Assembly (NCBI RefSeq): GCF_038396675.1
Contig: NC_088931.1
Span: forward strand, 21,364,001 to 21,428,000
Origin: Hydra vulgaris
Lineage: Eukaryota > Cnidaria > Hydrozoa > Anthoathecata > Hydridae
Reading direction: 5' to 3'
DNA length: 64,000 bases
This document shows, piece by piece, positions 4,658 to 50,476 of this stretch (positions are counted from its first letter, which is position 1; every line of letters starts with the position of its first letter). Under the pieces are notes generated by a model. The model worked only from the letters and a program-made list of their open reading frames with translations. It did not search any database and was not told the origin of the DNA. A program made the position numbers and the translations under genes.

Positions 4658-6466
4658 TTAAAAAGAGAGATGCAAAGTTGTTCTTTGTATTATTACTTCT
4701 CCTTGGAACAAAGAAATTGGTGGTGGAAGAAAATCAGTTGGAATAAGATGAAACAGTGAGCTGCAACGATGACCACAGCATTTTTGATCATTACATTTTA
4801 CAATTTGAAGGAAGTATTGACTTTCTCTGACATGTTTAGCATCCCACTCTGCTCCAAAATGTTTTAACTGTACACATTTTTCACTGTTTGGTTTTATGTA
4901 CTCGGCTTTAGTTTCAAATCCATCAATGACTGTGCTAGACCAAATTTGTGCAAGAACTTCACCTGCTTTGGTATTTGGAGCATTAGTGGCCACAAACATT
5001 GCATCAAGATCATGTTCTTTGAAATAAGTCTTGGCACAATGAATTGTTTTTTCATATCTTGAATTTTCATCTGGCCCACCATCAACAGTTATAATCATGA
5101 TTGGTTTGCTAATTCCATCTTCAGTAAATAAGCTGCTTTTAAATGCAGGAAGATGGTTTATTCTGTTCATGTCTTCTAAGTGACTAAGTGCTGTTGATGA
5201 ATCATGTTTTGCACTTCTGATTGCTATGTATGTTGGGCCAGAGTACGTGACTGCTTGTTTTTCCATGCAATCCTTTTTAATTTCTATGACTGCAATTACT
5301 GAAGGAATAAGTTTGTGTTGAGAGGCAATTACAAAATCATGATCAGCTAAAGTTACCTTGTACTCAATATGCATCATCATTGGTGCTTGTTTGCTTGCAG
5401 CTGTCAATCCAATTGGCACCCTAGCTTTATCATTCTGGGAGTGAAACGTCACTTCTTTAGGACCCAAGACTGCCGCAAGTTCTTCAAGGCCACTAATGGA
5501 TGATTTGGCAAATTTTGTGTCTGCATGATATTTATGCTCAAAATTTTGTGCTCTTATTAACCGGACAGGTGCAGTTTTAACATGTCTTTTTCCTTCTGTG
5601 CTCAATAATCTGCTTGGAAGTAATCTTAAGTAAACTCCTGATCTCGAGAGATTGTAACCATGATTTTTCAATTCTTGAACCAAGTCATTTAATGTTTTTA
5701 CAGTTCGAACCATTTCAGTTCTTCTCCTATCATCAGAAGCAGACTCTTTCATGGCAATATCTACAATTGCTTTTATTAAACTGTCCTGATCACAGGCTAG
5801 CGGTCGACCTTTTGATACTGAATTTTTAATTCCATACAACTTTTTTCTAATATCTGAATCTAATGCTTCTATAGCTTTTTTTCTTTTTAGTCTGGTTGCT
5901 GTTTGGCGTTCAGTGGCTTTTTGACGAAGTACAAGATCTCGGTTTTTTTCTACCAAAAGTTTTTGCTTTTGCCCTAGTATTTGGTAGTCTTGTGACAACA
6001 AGTTGCAATTTCTTTTTTCAGTGAGATATGCAATATCTTTTTGTAAAATAAAAATTTCATTTTTTAACTGATCTTGTTTCGGGGCTTGTTTTGTTACAAC
6101 TTTTGAGAAATTGGAATTTTCTTTTTCACACTCTTCACTTGTTGTAATTGATGGGGTCGCGTTAGTCACGCCATCAAAAGTGATTTTAGATTCGACCGCA
6201 CGCTTTTTTGGTGTATTCGGTACTTGGTTCGATAATTTTGTCCAGTAAGATAAAATACTAACTTTATTTCGGAGTTCAATTTGTTTTAGCTCTTTTAACT
6301 TTTTTTCAACTTCTACATTTAATTCGGATAATGTTTTGCTCTTTGTTTTAATCTCAGACCAGATTTTATTTGTTTCTTCTTGAGACTTTTGCTTTGGTTT
6401 GTTTGCAAATGCTTTCAAATATCCTTCATAAATAGATTTGTAAAGTTTTTCTTTTTCACTAGACAT
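4658..6466 (-). pseudogene. Zator-like transposase, catalytic segment apparently deleted
   Basis: A 602-codon open frame covers most of the element. The first 200 residues are lysine- and glutamate-rich and probably coiled coil. A helix-turn-helix-like stretch with SRSGVYLRLLPSR follows. The catalytic core has YHADTKF (first acid) and ITVDGGPDENSRY (second acid), the pattern shared by Zator and bacterial ISAzo13/TP36 transposases. The family then normally continues after N-A-P with a block holding the third acid (an N-x-x-E-R motif). Here NAPN runs directly into TKAGEVLAQIWSSTVIDGF, so that block seems to have been deleted in frame. The cysteine pattern KCNDQKCCGHRCSS and FLPPP near the end are also family-like. 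The frame stops early; C-terminal coding continues downstream in another frame. Family naming is from memory of motif order. Confidence 0.7.
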
Positions 6467-9612: not shown

Positions 9613-9666
9613 CACCATTGCTGGATCATCAGGAAGAGAACTCTTCCTGATGATCCAGCAATGGTG
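9613..9666. repeat. Perfect 26-bp palindrome (2-bp centre) around a hammerhead half
   Basis: 9613-9638 is the exact reverse complement of 9641-9666, separated by AA. The right arm holds the first half of the hammerhead motif annotated next; the left arm is a mirror copy that lacks the GAAA half. Confidence 0.95.
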
Positions 9667-9710: not shown

Positions 9711-9901
<191 letters not shown>

Positions 9902-10203
9902 TACAGTATTGGACAAAACATTTGCAACCAACATCGAACAATGCTAAAAAGTGTTTCTAATTTTACATGTCTTAAAAACGAAACGAACTATACTACCACA
10001 GCAAACAGTTCAGGAGTCTGGAGTCATAGCATGCCATGACATGAGCAATCAGCTGACAGGTGACAGCACACAGGCAGAATTTCGTTGACAAGTGCCATTT
10101 TGCAGCGGACAAAACAAGTGCAACTTTTTTGGTTTGTTTCATTTTCTTAAGTCTGGTCCGTGTCAACGTCACGGAGGTTTTTTAATAATTAAAGGAAGTA
10201 TCC

Positions 10204-10383
10204 AGAAGTTTCCAGAAGCATGAAGAAGCTTCCAGAAGTTTCCAGAAGAAGCATCTGGAAGCATCCAGAAACATTCAGACGCATCCAGAAGCATCGAAAA
10301 GAAGCATCTAGAATCTTCCAGAACAGGTTCACACAGGTTCATTTTACTATATAAGAGACATGTAAATCGACATGTAATTCAGT
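10204..10383 (+). promoter_or_regulatory. Heat-shock-type promoter: HSE array, TATA box, Inr-like site
   Basis: Three runs of alternating nGAAn/nTTCn pentamers are perfectly spaced: 10204-10218 (3 units), 10224-10248 (5 units) and 10310-10324 (3 units). Isolated GAA and TTC blocks lie between. A TATATAAG box is at 10348-10355 and a TTCAGT initiator-like hexamer at 10378-10383, 33 bp from the start of the TATA box to its A. This layout equals that of hsp70 promoters. It sits between the inner direct repeat (10107-10124) and the transposase ATG (10623), so it is positioned to drive transposase. Confidence 0.75.
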
Positions 10384-10622
10384 CAGTATATGGAAGTCAA
10401 TCAGTCAGTATTATCAAGACAGTTTATCAAAGTGAGTTTTATCAAAGTGTTTTATCGAAGAACATCAATACAAGAAGTGAAATACAACAAGTGTTTCATT
10501 ACATCAATACAGTCCACATCCAACCAAGACGTTGTGTTCCACATTATTGTATCACAAGGTAAATATAACACGGTAAGCCTTGAGAAGCGTGATTATTTAT
10601 TTTTATGACTTCAAGTGCAAAA

Positions 10623-11720
10623 ATGGCTCCCGACAGTCTTGGATTGGAACAAAGAAAGAAAACTATCGGCGATTACGTAAGTGGAATGTCACAAATAAGT
10701 ATTTGTGATAAATATCGTGTGAAAAAATGGACCGTATCAAGACTATGTTCCTAATATCGTTCTACGGGGAAGTTGGCAGCAGATAACAAAGGTGGAAGAC
10801 TGCGTTCCACCACTTCTAGAGAGGATTCTATGATCGTCAGATCCATCAAGAAGGATCCTTGGATATACAGTCGAGATACAAAAGCAATTAGAGCTGCCTG
10901 TATCGGACCGAACAATCAGACGACGTGCTGTTGAAGCTAGATTGTTTTCTCGACGCCCTGCAAAGAAACCGCTGATTTCACTAAAAAACTACAAGAAAAG
11001 ACTCCAGTTTGCTACATCTCATATTGACTGGAATGTGCAGAAATGGCGAACTGTCCTGTTCAGTGATGAATCGAAGTTCAACATCATTGGGAGCGATGGC
11101 ATTTGCCGTGTACGTCGACCGGTCGGAAAACGCCTCGATTTACGTTACTGCCATAAGACCGTGAAGCATGGTGGAGGCAATGTAATGGTCTGGGGGTGTT
11201 TTTCTGCTAACGGTCTAGGTCCATACATCGAAACGATGGAATAATGAACCGTTTCATGTATAAAAATATCCTGAAAGACGTTATGTTATCTCATGCTGAA
11301 TGAAATATGCCAATAAAATGGGTTTTTCAGCAAGACAACGATCCGAAACACACTGCTAAAGAAGTCAAGCGGTGGTTTCAAGACAACCACTTATCAGTGA
11401 TGGATTGGCCGTCTCAATCTCTGGATCTCAACCCTATCGAGAATCTGTGGGAGATCGTCAACTGCAGAATTAATCGTGAAGGTGTTCGTAATAAGGATCA
11501 ACTGTTTAAACAAATCCAAAAGGCCTGGGCAGCGATTCCACAAAGTTTCATTGATCACCTGATCGAATCTATGCCTCGAAGATGCAAGGCTGTGATCGAC
11601 AACAAAGGATTCGCCACGAAATACAGCTTGGTCAACATTTTGTCGAGTTGCACTTATTTTGTCCAGAAGGAAATCAACTTTTTTTATACTTTTGATTTAT
11701 TAATTTTCGTGTACAAATAA
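10623..11720 (+). pseudogene. Tc1 DD34E transposase, broken
   Basis: The start is ATG at 10623 (MAPDSLGLEQRKK). An N-terminal paired-like HTH region is followed by the catalytic core: LFSDESKFN (first D), VFQQDNDPKHT (second D) and LDLNPIENLW (E), with 34 residues between the second D and E. WGCFSANGLGP and MPRRCKAVI are typical Tc1 landmarks. Lesions: an in-frame TAA at 10752, a frameshift near 10890, a second shift near 11230 and an in-frame TGA at 11301. The gene is therefore dead in this copy although its ends and promoter remain intact. It could still be mobilised in trans. Confidence 0.85.
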
Positions 11721-11864
11721 TGAACTTTGTGATGAATAAAACTTGAAGAACTTTGTCTCTAAACAGTTACATAGTTATTTCTCTAAATTGAAAAAATGCA
11801 GCCCTTTTATATAAAGAAACTAAATTAGCATTATTTGGTTGCACTCGTTTTGTCCGATACTGTA

Positions 11865-13211: not shown

Positions 13212-13242
<31 letters not shown>

Positions 13243-14964
13243 ATATACACTGCCGCTCACGGAAGTTAGGACAGTGGAGATTTTTTCGAAAAAGCAAAAT
13301 TAATATATAATTACGCTATAGAATTTTTAATTTATATTAATAAAAATTATACTTTTTATACATTTTCAATATAAAATATATTGTTAGTCAGTTTTATGTA
13401 ATAAAAATGTACAAAACCATTATAATAATTAAATTTTTTTTTCGTCAAAAAAACCACCCTTTGATTTAATAACTGCTTTAACTATTCTCGGCATTCTTTC
13501 AATTAATTTTCTAATTGTTTCTTTTTGAATATTATTCCATTCCTGTTCTATAATGTTCCATAAATGAGATTTTGATGTTGGACATACAGTTCTAATTTTT
13601 CTATCCAGTTCATCCCATAGTAACTCAATGGGGTTGAGGTCTGGGCTTTGGGGAGGCCAGGTCATTACACGTAATAAATTTTCAGCTTTTTGTGATTCTA
13701 AATAATTTTTACATAATAATGCAGTATGTTTAGGGTCATAATCATGCATCAGAATAAAATTATCTCCGATTAGTCGAAGTCCCGAAGGGATTGCACTTGT
13801 TTCCAGGATATCTCTATAATGTTCTGCTCTCATTATATCATCGATTTTATGCAAATATCCCACTCCATCCAGAGAGAAACAACCCCAAACTATCACAGAG
13901 CCTTCACCATGTTTTACTGTTGGAACCAGAAATTGAGTTAGCATTTTTTCTTCAGCAGATTTTCTAACGTAAACTCTTTGCTTATTTCCGAAAACTTCAA
14001 ATTTTGACTCATCGATCCAGAGTACTTGTTTCCATTCATCCATTGTCCAATTTTTGTGGAGCTGTGCCCAACGGAATCTCTTCTGTCGATTAACTTTTCG
14101 TAGATATGGTATTCGGATAGCAACAAGACCATGCAAATTAGCTTTTTGCAATCTTCGTTTGATTGTACTGACAGAAACTTTTTTTTCTCGATCACAGTTA
14201 AAAATAGCTGTTATTTGTGGAGCAGTTAACATTTGATTACGCTTACTGATGATTTTTATACGTCGGTCATCAGTTTTTGTTGTTATGCGAGAAGGACCTG
14301 GACGATTTCTGTCTTCCAAACTTCCAGATTCTCGATATCGACGAATTGTATAGCTAACTGTTGATTTACTCAGATTTAATTTTTCAGCTATTTTTCTAAC
14401 TGTATAGCCTTCTTGAAGCAAAGTGAGTATTGCTGTCCTTTTTTCAACACTTATTGGCTTACCTTTAGGCATATTTTTGTCAATATTTTAAATTTACACT
14501 AAAAAAATAATTTTTAATTTTACCTTTGAACTTCTGCACTTGAAGTTTTTAAAACACTAACACAAAATACACAAAATATCTGCAAAAACACAGTAAACAA
14601 TAGAAATACTTGTTAAATGACAAAGTTAAAAGATTTGAGTTGATAATGTAAACTACAGGTTCATATGTGACCTTTAATATGTTTCTGCATTCTCTGTTTA
14701 TTTATTTAAAATGATAAGACTTTTACTTGTGAGTACAATTTATGTTATTTTAAATGTTAGTTATTTTAATATATTTACATTAAAATAACTTAATTTAGAA
14801 TTTTTTTGATACAAATTTTATTTAACTTGATTTATTTTTATATAAACATAAATTTTACTAATATAAGTAAATAATTTTATAACATAATTACATTTTAATA
14901 TTGTTCTTTTGAAAAAATATTTTTTGTCCTAACTTCCGTGAGCAGCAGTGTATATATGTGTATG

Positions 14965-15037
<73 letters not shown>

Positions 15038-30100: not shown

Positions 30101-33100
30101 CAGCATCACTAGCCTCGAGTAGAACTGAGAAATGATACCATTAAATAAAAAAATGATAATGATCTGATAATAATTAGCAATTCTTTACCACAGAAATAGA
30201 TTTTTTTTTAATTACATTCACCTCCATAAGTGTTCAGAGAGAAGCCACTGAAGTCAAGGAAATTACCCATTTTACTTGAAACTCTCTTCTACCTCAAACT
30301 CCAAAACACAAACTATGTTAAACAAAGATTTGAACCTCAAACCACTTGATTGTGAGCCAAAATTTTTACTACTATAACATTACATTTTAAAGAGTTTTCT
30401 GATGCATAAAGGCTAATTTTAGTTAAATTAATGAACTGTGAATTATAAAAAATAAAAAACTTTTGAAATCAAAACCTCTCTATAAAATCTTTAAAATGTC
30501 CCTGAAATTATTTTATAGATAACTTACTCTGTAAGTTGATGCATTTATGTTAACATTTTTACCACGACTGGTCAGAGTTGACTTCATACGCAAGAAGAAT
30601 GATCGATATGGGCTATTCTTGAGCTCATCACAAATTTCTAAAAACAAATTTTATTAAATTATTTTTATTCATTTGATTTAATAATAATATAATTATATTA
30701 ATTAGCCAAGGCTTTTTTTTTTAACATGTATTTAAAGAGTTTTAAATAGTAAAAATGTATAAGCAAAATGAAAAATCTAAATCAAAGAATAACAGACATC
30801 AATCAAAAAAATAAATTTTTGAATTTTTTTATGTTACAACATAAGTATTTTTTATAAAAAAACTCAGTTTCTAAATCCAAACTAATATTTATTACAAAAC
30901 ACGCATGAAACTATTTAAATCTAGTGTGGCATGCAGTTAAGTGGGCATTTTCTAACAGTTGTTTTTTTTTTTTTAATGGGATTTAATATGTTGATATAAG
31001 TTTTATACTTTGGTGGAAATAAAATAAAAGTTCATTTTTGATAAATCAAGATTTACTTGAGAATCATCCATAAATTACGTAACGCAAACTTTCACAATAA
31101 ACAAAACAAAAAAGATCAAAACTTTTCTCTCGCAGAGTCTTAATTTAAATAAAAAATGTTGATATAAGTTTTATAACTAAAAGCTAAAATACATTAAACA
31201 ATCATGTTAAAACTAAATACTTAATTATGTTTAATACATTTTTTAACAACTTAAGGGATCTTTAATATAATAGTTAGATTATTATTTGCACTTACTAATT
31301 ATGTATTAGGTAACCAAAAAAGTTCGTGCGGTTGTTGGTAATTGAATTGTTTTTAGCATTTTTTACAACACCCACATCGCACAAGGCAAGTAGCTTTGTT
31401 GCGTAATAGAACGCGTGTGTCACGCGCAGTTGCTGCATATATAGTGTAGGCTTGTAACGAGCTTACAGGAAAGGTTTTGTGTAAAGAAAGGATGGCAACC
31501 CAACCAACGATTATTCGATCTTGCTTACTTTACGAGTTCAAACTTGGAAGGAATGCAACACAAGCGGCCAAAAACATCTGCACAGCATTTGGAGAAGGTA
31601 CAGTAAGTGAACGCACAGCACAGAAGTGGTTTCAGCAATTCTCTTCGGGAGATGAGTCCATCGAAGACCTGCCGCGTTCTGGACGCCCATTGTTGGTTGA
31701 TGAGGATGAACTGAAGGACGCTGTCGAGTCTGACTCCAGCCAAACTTGCCAAGAACTTGCAGTGAGGTTTGCTGTGAGTGTTGAAACCATCCGCCTGCAT
31801 CTGCATGCGATTGGGAAAGCGTGGAAGCTGAGTCGGTGGGTTCCGCACAAATTGTCGATCGACAACAAGAAGCAACGGCTTACGATCTGCACATCACTCT
31901 TATCACGCAACAATGTTGAGCCTTTTCTTGATCGTTTATTGACATGCGACGAAAAATGGGTTGTGTACAACAATACCAAGCGTTGCTACCATTGGTTGTC
32001 CCCCGATGACCCCATCCCAAAGGCACCCAAGCCCAATCTCCACGAGCGGAAGGTTTTGCTCTGCATTTGGTGGACTACAGCTGGTGTGGTGCATTACGAG
32101 TTGCTCCCAACAGGCCAAACCATTACTGGACTGGTCTACTCACCACAGCTGCAACGAGTTCACGACCTGTTGCTTGTAAAGCAGCCTGCACTGGTGCACA
32201 GGAGAGGAGTTCTGCTTCTCCACGACAACGCGAGACCGCACACCGCTCGCGTGACTCAGGACAAGCTCCAAAGCCTTGGTTGGGAGAGTTTGCCTCATCC
32301 ACCATACTCGCCAGACCTCTCCCCTACTGATTTCCATTTTTTCCTTTCCCTGGGAAATCATTTAAAAGGACAGCAGTTCCGAGACCAGGACGCGGTTGAA
32401 ATGGAGTTGAAAGCTTTTATAGACTCAAAGGACCAAGAACTTTTTAGAAGTGGAATAAATAAGCTTGTTTTACGTTGGGAAAAGGTTTTAGATGCTAATG
32501 GTGACTATTTTGATGAATAAATGTACTTACTTTTGTCGTTTTGTGTGTTTTTATTATATACGGAAAAACCGCACAAACTTTTTTGGTTACCTGATATTTA
32601 CACATTTAATCATTTAAAGTAAAACTTGAAATCTAACCCTAATATAGGTTAACTTTTTTATTATGACCTTTTGAACTTTCAGGAGTTTTAAACCAATTGG
32701 GAAATACATCATACCATTAGACTTTCTAAACCCCTGATGTTTACATAAATATATCTTTCTTGATACACACTATCAGATAAACTATTCCCAATCTCCTTCT
32801 AAGATCACTGTTTCTTTTCTCATCTTTTAAAGCCTCACAAATACATCCATCTGTTCATAATCTTTTTTATTCTTTCCAAACAATTGACAGCATAAACTTT
32901 AATTCATTGTGCTTCTTCTGCTCCCCCAGCTGATTCAACTGCATCTCCAAGATATAACAAAAATTACTAACAGTCTATTTTAGAATAGATAAAGGAAAAA
33001 CCATTATTATATTTCAAGAAGTTGAGTTTTGAAGGGTGTTTACCCTCAAGCTTAACAACAAGCTAAAAGGAACATTAATAACAGTAATAAAACATTAAAA

Positions 33101-47897: not shown

Positions 47898-50476
47898 TTG
47901 TTAGTTGAGCACTCTATATTTGTATATTCAACAATAGATAACATCCAGTTTGATTATTCTCTTAAAAACATACCCACAACGGGAAAAACAAATTATAATA
48001 TCAAATTAGTAGAAAAAATAGAAAGTTTCATAAAAAGAGTTCGTTGGAAAACTCATTTTTTTTCTGAAAAACGAACAAAACAATGAAACAAACGATAATT
48101 ACGGTTTTAAATCAAAACTAACACCCCCTCAATGTACCGAGCTAAACGACTTTGAAAATGACCTTTTAAATTTAGTCAAATCTATTAAATTCAGAAACAT
48201 AAACGATCAATTTCAAACAAAAATAAAAAAAGATATCCTTAAAATTGTAACCAGCAAAGAAGTTCACGTATTTGCTGATAAAACCAATAATCTATATAAT
48301 GTCTGCTGAAAGTCAAAATAAACTGATGAACGAAAATGTTACAAAAACCTATAAAAAAGCACCGGATAATTTAGAAAAATCAGTCAACCTAGAAGCCAAC
48401 CAAATAGCTTTAAAACTAAATTTAAATAACCGAATTGAATACCTAGCAAAATCTCCAGCATTTATCACCTTAAAAGACCATAAAAAAAACTTTCAATCAA
48501 AACCTGCTTGCCGTCTCATTAACCCGGCAAAAAGCGAAATCGGAATAATAAGCAAAAAAATCTTAGACATTACTAACACATACTTAAGAAACAGCCTAAA
48601 AGTAAACCAATGGAAAAATACCACCGACGTTATTAATTGGTTCAACGGCATAGAAGACAAAAATAGTTGTTGCTTCATCCAATTCGACATAAACGAATTT
48701 TATCCATCTATAACTACAGAAATATTTAATAAAGCCGTTTCCTTTGCAAAACAACACACCACAATAACAGGCAAACAACTTAGAATTATAACACATAGCC
48801 GAAAATCCCTCCTCTACTTCAACAATAACACATGGATAAAAAAATTGAACCATGAATGTTTTGATGTAACAATGGGCAGCTACGATGGCGCTGAAATTTG
48901 CGAACTTGTAGGGATCTACATTCTCAACGAATTATCTAATATAATTATAAAAACCGACATAGGGCTTTACCGTGATGATGGCTTGTTGATAATACGCAAT
49001 TCTAACGGCCAAGAAATGGAGCGAATCCGAAAAAATATAATCCAAAAGTTTAAAGACGTTGGATTTCAAATAGACATAAGAACAAATCTTAAATCAGTTA
49101 ACTTCCTTGATCCTTAAATCCTTAACTTTCAATTTAGCCCAAAACACCCATAAGCCTTTCAAAAAACCCAACGATAATCTTCAATATATCCACATATCTT
49201 CTAATCACCCACCACAAATTATTAAACACTTACCTACTTCAATATCAAACAGACTATCACAAAATTCCTCCAGCGAAGTTATATTTAATCAATCTAAAAA
49301 CGAATATGAACAAGCACTAAAAAATAGCGGATACAAAAACTACTCCCTCAAATATCAGATCAAACAAAAAATATCCCAGAAAAATCGTAAACGCAATACC
49401 ATATGGTTCAACCCCCCATTTAATAAAAACGTCTCCACAAATGTTGCAAAAATGTTCTTGTATTTACTAGAAAAAAACTTCCCTAAGACACACAAACTTC
49501 ACAAAATCTTAAACAGAAACCCTGTAAAGGTTTTTCTATATTTACAGTTGCACTGAAAATATAGAAAAAATTATAAAAAACCACAACAAAAAAATTATCT
49601 TCCCTAGAATTGAAAATAATGATCCAAAATGCAACTGTCGAAACAAAGCAGAATGCCCCCTGAATGGTAAGTGCAAATCAACAAATATTATATATAAATG
49701 CATCATCGCAGCAAAAAACCAACCCAGCAAAGTTTATATAGGATTAACGGAAGGTGAGTGGAAAACCAGATACAACAACCACAAATCATCATTCAATAAT
49801 ATTAAATACAAAAATTCGACCGCCCTATCAAACTATGTCTGGGATTTAAAAAACAATTTTAATGAAACCCCTATGCTAACATGGTCTATTCTCAAATCAG
49901 TACCCCCCTACTCAAATATTTCCAAAAGATGCCCACTATGTCTGTATGAGAAATTTACTATTATATCATATCCAAAACCTGAAGAACTAAATAAGAGAAC
50001 CGAAATTATATCAAAGTGCCGCCACGAAAATAAATTCTTATTAAAAAATTACAAAGCTCGCTACAAACCTGACTAACAACTATAAATAAAAATAACAATA
50101 CTAATCTGCTCCATATATCTCTAGGCTAACTAATAAATTACTCACATACACAGCTTTTGTAATATATTTCATAATATTATGTATATCTTTATATCAATTT
50201 TAATTCTTATTTTTATTTTATTATTTTTTAATACACAAATAATACACATTAACACATAAAAATATTTTAAACAACATTAAACATATAACTATTTCACAAT
50301 TATTAGCCAACTATAAACAAATTAATAATATTATTAACCTAACTACTAATCAATTTCCATCCCGTAACGATCTAAAATACAAATAAACCGTAACGTCCAC
50401 TAAACAAATCGTAGCAAAATTAAACTTTTACTACTTGCCTGATGATTGTGATAACACATGAAACTCAGAGTTGCAA
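47898..50476 (+). pseudogene. Penelope-like retroelement: RT plus GIY-YIG endonuclease
   Basis: Reading order on the plus strand. N-terminus: FDYSLKNIPTTGKTNYNIKL and ESFIKRVRWKTHFF (47940-48086). A frameshift leads to TPPQCTELNDFENDLLNLVK. The reverse transcriptase at 48272-49117 has PAFITLKDHKKNF, FIQFDINEFYPSI (first catalytic Asp), TMGSYDGAEICELVG and GLYRDDGLLI (YxDD). After another shift LQYIHISSNHPPQIIKHLP and RNTIWFNPPFNKNVS follow (49107-49520). A third shift leads to a CxC...C cluster (CNCRNKAECPLNGKC), then IYKCIIAA...KVYIGLTEGEW...NHKSSF, a GIY-YIG nuclease, and CPLCLYEKFTI, with the stop at 50074-50076. RT and endonuclease order is diagnostic of Penelope-like elements. It is nested in the hAT element. 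At least three frameshifts make it inactive. Confidence 0.88.
50435..50476 (+). ncRNA. Hammerhead ribozyme motif at the Penelope-like 3' end
   Basis: Helix I TTGC (50435-50438) pairs with GCAA (50473-50476). CTGATGA is at 50439-50445. Helix II is TGTG-ATAA-CACA (50447-50458) with a U-U mismatch at its base. GAAA is at 50460-50463. Helix III is AC/GU with a 5-nt loop, and the cleavage triplet GUU ends at 50472. Same layout as 9642-9683. Hammerheads in the terminal repeats of Penelope-like elements are an established finding. Confidence 0.82.

What the first reader, a model, noticed from the sequence alone, without database searches (positions are those of the whole stretch)
9904..11862. Tc1-type transposon carrying a complete heat-shock-type promoter
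Between the inner direct repeat of the left end and the transposase ATG lie three perfect HSE runs (3, 5 and 3 alternating GAA/TTC pentamers with exact 5-bp phasing), a TATATAAG box, and a TTCAGT initiator 33 bp downstream. Five perfectly phased pentamers are most unlikely by chance in AT-rich DNA. The element could transpose in response to heat or stress and could donate heat-shock inducibility to genes near which it lands. I do not know of a description of this in Tc1 elements of this group.
Basis: partly seen in the sequence, partly recalled or inferred. Interest (0 to 1): 0.82.

Follow-up and report, generated by a model that had tools for sequence, protein, structure and literature searches.

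The report
Tc1 transposon with heat-shock-like promoter
A family of jumping genes, very likely from Hydra, carries in front of its transposase gene a promoter built like that of a heat-shock gene, and other copies of the family that could be read share it, so the family may be switched on by heat or stress; this has not been tested at the bench.

Summary
The element at 9904-11862 is a Tc1-type transposon flanked by TA, with outer and inner repeats at both ends. Between the left inner repeat and the transposase start lie perfect GAA/TTC runs of 3, 5 and 3 units, TATATAAG at 10348 and TTCAGT with its A at 10381. None of 5,000 shuffles gave a five-unit run, but the runs sit in a 10-bp tandem repeat (consensus GAAGCATCCA), so shuffles overstate the odds.

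This copy is dead: two stops and two frameshifts in the transposase. DNA of other copies could not be fetched, but eight public protein clusters are read-throughs of the same region. Seven of eight fit the five-unit run; the eighth starts downstream. Three reading frames together fix all 15 of its bases. One cluster is named Hydra vulgaris. So the promoter belongs to a family, not to one copy. HSF binding, heat induction and effects on neighbouring genes are inferred. HSE-bearing transposons are known (Helitrons in Caenorhabditis, ONSEN in plants); the ten answered searches of an open-access library showed no Tc1/mariner case. New variant of a known kind.

The parts
9902..9903 (.). TA target dinucleotide, left
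   Evidence: TA beside 9904
9904..9931 (+). Left outer terminal inverted repeat
   Evidence: Complementary to 11835-11862 at 24 of 28 bases
10106..10124 (+). Left inner repeat
   Evidence: 10107-10124 is 89% identical to 9911-9928; 10106-10124 is 95% complementary to 11838-11856
10195..10323 (+). 10-bp tandem repeat array, consensus GAAGCATCCA, 12.3 units
   Evidence: Tandem Repeats Finder
10205..10217 (+). Perfect HSE, 3 units
10225..10247 (+). Perfect HSE, 5 units
   Evidence: fits 7 of 8 other clusters
10311..10323 (+). Perfect proximal HSE, 3 units
   Evidence: fits 7 of 8 other clusters
10348..10355 (+). TATATAAG box
10378..10383 (+). TTCAGT initiator-like site, predicted start at 10381
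   Evidence: position relative to TATA; start inferred
10381..10622 (+). Predicted 5' leader; GTAAAT at 10559 and TTTTTATGACTTCAAG ending at 10615 could serve as splice donor and acceptor (untested)
   Evidence: sequence; inference
10623..11624 (+). Broken Tc1-type transposase; ATG at 10623, or in frame at 10605; TAA at 10752, TGA at 11301, frameshifts near 10865 and 11240
   Evidence: three-frame translation; PF01498 and PF13358 on two of three pieces, none on the N-terminal 49 residues; homologues
11646..11664 (-). Right inner repeat
11835..11862 (-). Right outer terminal inverted repeat
11863..11864 (.). TA target dinucleotide, right

Best explanation
A multi-copy Tc1/mariner family, very likely of Hydra (DD34E transposase, outer plus inner repeats at each end), has a strong-looking, HSF-responsive type of promoter for its transposase: an array of HSF-binding pentamers that ends 24 bases before a TATA box, then a start site at about 10381, all inside the inner repeats so that it moves with every copy. 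Under heat or protein-damage stress host HSF trimers would bind the five-unit and three-unit runs and raise transposase mRNA from intact copies, so that mobilisation of copies with working ends, dead ones included, would be coupled to stress. Shown: anatomy, more than simple chance, sharing across the copies that could be read. Inferred: HSF binding, heat induction, mobilisation.
For: HSE runs, TATA and initiator in the order and spacing of heat-shock gene promoters (the comparison with heat-shock promoters is recalled). Eight other protein clusters read through the same region. A five-unit run fits 7 of 8, at exactly one position each, against 1 of 20,000 random 9-mers of array residues (a control that keeps composition, not the repeat order); the proximal three-unit run fits 7 of 8, against 50 of 20,000 random 6-mers. 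Aligned in register, all 7 place the five-unit run on 10225-10247. Three reading frames together fix all 15 of its bases. In register, 0 of 187 HSE-critical cells changed against 26 of 594 in the rest of the array; as distinct changes 0 against 15, p = 0.03, and as changes seen in one cluster only 0 against 12, p = 0.08, on residue-fixed cells. In P0126 spacer bases of two runs changed while the runs still fit. The other Tc1 and the mariner in the window have 0 sites of 8/9 or better in 928 and 927 bases before their ORFs, against 11 in 9904-10622. Homologue cluster P0001 has 229 member sequences. Hydra vulgaris is reported to make a heat-shock protein and tolerate heat (review PMC7904725, passages), and TcMar-Tc1 is reported among putatively active, expressed Hydra element families (PMC12220107, section 6 and passages). 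HSF-1 association and heat induction of an HSE-bearing DNA transposon are reported in C. elegans (PMC6765114, PMC6927752, passages).
Against: No expression, HSF-binding or start-site data. Other copies are seen only as translations: silent bases are inferred, only copies open in a frame are seen, and the clusters share ancestry. The HSE bases were picked because they are perfect in the window copy, which favours them in the counts; a first count with one cluster out of register gave p = 0.14. The consensus repeat unit is an imperfect HSE (GAA..ATC). In P0126 the inferred DNA lacks TATATAAG and bases between TATA and initiator seem lost; its database protein reads through the array as coding sequence, which, if backed by RNA, would put a start upstream in that copy. 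The copy in the window is dead.
Confidence: 0.6

Rival explanations
1. The array is an ordinary 10-bp minisatellite near the end of a transposon that happens to look like HSEs; transposase transcription is driven by TATA alone or by flanking sequence, and heat does nothing.
For: Tandem Repeats Finder calls it a 10-bp array with consensus GAAGCATCCA, which has 5 of 6 HSE bases; a random 10-bp unit reaches that with 4.6-6.7%. Array length differs between copies: P0122 has ten residues (30 bases) more than P0123 there. Constraint on HSE bases is at best borderline once shared changes are counted once.
Against: The perfect five-unit run and the proximal perfect run fit every cluster that covers them (7 of 7 each), and the array stops 24 bases before a TATA box in the orientation of the transposase. 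A perfect HSE unit arises in only 0.2-0.3% of random 10-bp units.
Confidence: 0.25
2. The promoter and leader were captured from a host heat-shock gene, such as an hsp70 of Hydra or of a former host.
For: The set of HSE array, TATA, initiator and A-rich leader resembles hsp70 promoters (recalled).
Against: Not tested: no host heat-shock gene could be compared, since the search of the window's own genome did not complete in 11 tries (first, last). A 10-bp tandem array fits local amplification as well. This rival would not exclude heat induction.
Confidence: 0.1
3. The region is coding: the open frames of 118-218 residues that cross all or part of it (P0121-P0127) are an accessory protein of the element.
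For: Seven clusters are open across all or part of the region, in the same frame downstream of the array, and one bears an NCBI name, Hydra vulgaris LOC124814402.
Against: The shared downstream frame is expected, since the search was made with P0121 in that frame. Across the five-unit run the frame differs between clusters, and the window copy has a stop in it. P0126 runs on into other sequence upstream.
Confidence: 0.04

Closest known systems
Helitrons with HSEs in Caenorhabditis (Helitron1_CE)
   Same: [quoted passage not shown] passages)
   Different: Rolling-circle elements of nematodes; here a cut-and-paste Tc1 element, very likely of a cnidarian, with TATA box and initiator in register; no functional data here
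ONSEN of Arabidopsis
   Same: HSEs in the element's own promoter region drive heat-induced transcription (PMC8376061, passages)
   Different: LTR retrotransposon of plants
TCN3 and TCN12 of Cryptococcus
   Same: Putative HSEs proposed to explain heat-linked mobility (PMC12810828, passages)
   Different: LTR retrotransposons of a fungus; one or two putative HSEs
Tc1/mariner elements with blurry promoters (Bari1, Bari3, Sleeping Beauty, Hsmar1)
   Same: Same superfamily, promoter between the terminal repeats and the transposase (PMC6446368, passages)
   Different: Those promoters are described as AT-rich with weak core motifs; this one has TATA, initiator and an HSE array, the array being 43% G+C and 10324-10622 33%
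Sleeping Beauty-type Tc1 elements
   Same: Outer and inner repeats at both ends, TA target, DD34E transposase (the comparison is recalled)
   Different: No HSE array known to me there (recalled)

Membership tests
Tc1/mariner superfamily, Tc1-like DD34E | TA target duplication | tested here: met
   TA at 9902-9903 and 11863-11864; the element lies in a TA microsatellite, so a duplication cannot be told from the context
Tc1/mariner superfamily, Tc1-like DD34E | Terminal inverted repeats | tested here: met
   24 of 28 end bases complementary; inner repeats 95% complementary
Tc1/mariner superfamily, Tc1-like DD34E | Transposase with HTH and DDE domains, 34 residues between second D and E | tested here: met
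   PF01498 and PF13358 on two of three pieces; D245 and E280 of P0002 leave 34 residues between, and the aligned window ORF has both; that these are the catalytic residues is recalled
Tc1/mariner superfamily, Tc1-like DD34E | Intact transposase in this copy | tested here: not met
   Two stops and two frameshifts; a dead copy of the family
HSF-regulated promoter | At least three contiguous alternating GAA/TTC pentamers | tested here: met
   Runs of 3, 5 and 3
HSF-regulated promoter | HSE array upstream of a TATA box and initiator at proper spacing | tested here: met
   Array ends 10323, TATAAG at 10350, A at 10381
HSF-regulated promoter | Shared by other copies | tested here: met
   Five-unit run fits 7 of 8 clusters, proximal run 7 of 8; the missing one in each case does not cover the place. 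Protein level only
HSF-regulated promoter | Purifying selection on HSE bases | tested here: inconclusive
   In register 0 of 187 against 26 of 594, p = 0.0015 without correction for shared ancestry; distinct changes p = 0.03, single-cluster changes p = 0.08; first, out-of-register count p = 0.14
HSF-regulated promoter | HSF binding and heat induction | not testable with these tools
   No RNA or chromatin data held

The most novel reading that the evidence does not exclude
A cut-and-paste Tc1 family in Hydra has a heat-shock-gene type promoter and amplifies in bursts when the host is heat- or protein-stressed, seeding HSF-responsive start sites through the genome of an animal whose stem cells are long-lived, and so rewires the host's heat-shock network as Helitrons are reported to do in Caenorhabditis.
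Probability: 0.25. Interest if true: 0.75.

Novelty: new variant of a known kind. Interest (0 to 1): 0.52.

Why it matters
It would be a Tc1/mariner element with a stress-wired promoter, where the promoters of the superfamily studied in PMC6446368 are described as having weak core motifs. It gives a directly testable link between environmental stress and transposon bursts in Hydra, where related species are reported to differ in their heat-shock response (PMC7904725, passages), so the same family, if present in both, could be compared in responsive and non-responsive hosts.

Tried and rejected
DNA copies elsewhere: the window itself holds no second copy. IMG/VR: five scans, with the C-terminal ORF (1 stretch, none confirmed), the terminus GGACAAAACATTTGCAAC (13 contigs), the alignment A2 (29 stretches, none confirmed) and two promoter patterns (0 and 0). 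The 13 contigs match the element over 18-19 bases only, and 11 of 13 are one repeated stretch of other DNA. GTDB contigs: 14 stretches, none confirmed, and 0 for a promoter pattern. Phage records: no match. Metagenome contigs were not scanned (the cap is 0).

Coding reading of the promoter region considered and rejected (see rivals). Constraint on HSE bases: the first count (tested) had P0122 out of register in the array and a misaligned tail of P0050 and gave p = 0.14. The TCAGT that one search reports for P0050 lies in its misaligned tail and is not counted. My first reading of P0121 and P0050 by eye was that they had lost part of the five-unit run; the codon scan showed otherwise.

Rfam at gathering threshold and a tRNA scan of the window: nothing. 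Papers: ten searches were answered, of which 11 and 15 found no paper; one search listed 40 of 46 and one search listed 8 of 2,561. No paper describing HSEs in the promoter of a Tc1/mariner element was seen in these listings, which cover open-access papers only. Thirteen papers were opened for passages, two of them also for one whole section (PMC8896005 section 20, PMC12220107 section 6); no paper was read whole. PMC4298943, PMC10379824, PMC13293977 and PMC8834629 gave nothing used for the verdict; PMC11254759 reports an engineered mPing carrying HSEs, a made and not a natural case.

Full report
What is there. The element runs from 9904 to 11862 (1,959 bp) and sits in a TA microsatellite, with TA on both sides. 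Its ends are inverted repeats (24 of 28 bases) and each end has an inner repeat about 190-200 bp inside, the arrangement of Sleeping Beauty-type elements (recalled). The transposase is of Tc1 type: two of three pieces match PF01498 and PF13358, the N-terminal 49 residues match nothing; the six best hits are 60-88% identical; and D245 and E280 of the aligned relative P0002 are 34 residues apart. This copy is dead: TAA at 10752, TGA at 11301, frameshifts near 10865 and 11240.

The promoter. Between the left inner repeat and the ATG at 10623 are perfect alternating GAA/TTC runs of 3 (10205), 5 (10225) and 3 (10311) units, TATATAAG at 10348 and TTCAGT with the A at 10381. In 5,000 dinucleotide shuffles of 10120-10380 no five-unit run appeared, and no shuffle had three runs of 3 or more; 62 had any run of 3 or more. 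Eleven of the window's 39 near-perfect HSE trimers (8 of 9 bases or better) lie in 10190-10330; no 141-bp stretch starting outside 9801-10500 has more than 2. The other Tc1 and the mariner of the window have none in 928 and 927 bases before their ORFs, stretches that reach beyond those elements.

A caution on chance. The array is a 10-bp tandem repeat with consensus GAAGCATCCA, and 10 bp is exactly the HSE period, so once a unit contains GAA and TTC in phase, duplication gives runs for free. The fair question is how often a random 10-bp unit is HSE-like: 0.2-0.3% for a perfect unit, 4.6-6.7% for one as good as the consensus. That is unlikely but far from impossible, so sharing across copies matters more than shuffles. 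TATA plus initiator alone means little: 16 relaxed pairs occur in the window.

Sharing across copies. The DNA of other copies could not be reached (see Tried and rejected). A search with the joined transposase reading gave 5,337 relatives at E 1e-20 or better, 120 of them listed, the best being P0001, a cluster of 229 member sequences. P0050 in that list turned out to read through the array of another copy. Searching with part of it gave P0121 (2 of 4 candidates, counting itself), and P0121 gave six more (8 of 26 candidates, counting P0121 and P0050). These eight clusters, 19 member sequences, are translations of the same region in other copies. One is named Hydra vulgaris LOC124814402, which with 72% A+T makes Hydra the very likely source of the window; no species-level test was done.

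A codon scan of the eight shows one, and only one, place compatible with a five-unit HSE run in 7 of 8; the eighth, P0125, begins downstream of it. The proximal three-unit run fits 7 of 8; the exception, P0050, skips the place. Of 20,000 random 9-mers drawn from array residues, 1 fitted a five-unit run; of 20,000 random 6-mers, 50 fitted a three-unit run. That control keeps composition, not repeat order. Aligned in register, all seven put the five-unit run on 10225-10247, and the three frames in which different clusters read it together fix all 15 GAA/TTC bases. TATATAAG is in the inferred DNA of 6 of 8, the exceptions being P0126, which seems to have lost bases there, and P0050, which skips it; TCAGT is in the 7 that cover it. 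This is ascertainment-biased, since only copies open in a frame can be seen, but nothing in the scan requires an HSE to be kept.

Is the HSE kept by selection? The first count, with one cluster out of register and one misaligned tail, gave 6 of 208 HSE-critical cells changed against 36 of 644 in the rest of the array, p = 0.14. In register it is 0 of 187 against 26 of 594, p = 0.0015, but clusters share ancestry and the HSE bases were picked for being perfect in the window copy. Counting each distinct change once gives 0 against 15, p = 0.03; counting only changes seen in one cluster, 0 against 12, p = 0.08, both on residue-fixed cells. Suggestive, not proven; the sharing may also reflect the youth of the family.

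What does not support it. There is no RNA or HSF-binding evidence. The database protein for one copy treats the region as coding. P0126 has a damaged TATA-to-initiator stretch. The copy in the window is dead.

How it probably works. HSF trimers bind the runs under heat or proteotoxic stress, TATA and initiator set a start near 10381, and a leader of about 240 bases, perhaps shortened by cis- or trans-splicing (TTTTTATGACTTCAAG ends at 10615; about 30% of Hydra transposon Iso-Seq reads are reported to carry spliced leaders, PMC12220107 section 6), leads to the transposase. Intact copies would supply transposase for dead ones like this. All of this after the anatomy is inference.

Known or new. 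HSE-driven transposons are known: Helitron1_CE and other Helitrons in Caenorhabditis (PMC6765114, PMC6927752; passages) and ONSEN (PMC8376061; passages); putative HSEs are reported in LTRs of Cryptococcus elements (PMC12810828; passages). A survey of C. elegans elements reports transcription factor motifs in Tc1/mariner elements, with the HSEs placed in Helitrons (PMC8896005; passages and section 20). Tc1/mariner promoters studied in PMC6446368 (passages) are described as AT-rich with weak core motifs. I therefore file this as a new variant of a known kind, with moderate interest that would rise with heat-induction data.

Noticed in passing
Hydra vulgaris LOC124814402 (P0126): A named Hydra vulgaris protein is in part a read-through of the promoter and array of this transposon family, so it is probably a mis-annotated gene.
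   Followed up: partly
31304-32596: A mariner element with 33-nt inverted repeats (91%) and an open 347-residue transposase frame; no HSE trimer in 927 bases upstream.
   Followed up: partly
13232-14966: A second Tc1 element on the minus strand with inverted repeats (119 nt, 81%) and an open 347-residue transposase frame; no HSE trimer in 928 bases upstream.
   Followed up: partly
4658-6466: A 602-residue open frame on the minus strand with no Pfam match at E 0.01; possibly part of another mobile element.
   Followed up: no
48272-49556: Two open frames that look like Penelope-type reverse transcriptase pieces (recalled resemblance; the first has no Pfam match at E 0.01, the second was not scanned).
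   Followed up: no
10390-10608: A 72-residue open frame begins 9 bases after the predicted start; it could act as an upstream frame that limits translation of the transposase.
   Followed up: no
9613-9666: A perfect hairpin (26-base arms, 2-base loop, read by eye) about 240 bp left of the element, beyond the TA repeat.
   Followed up: no
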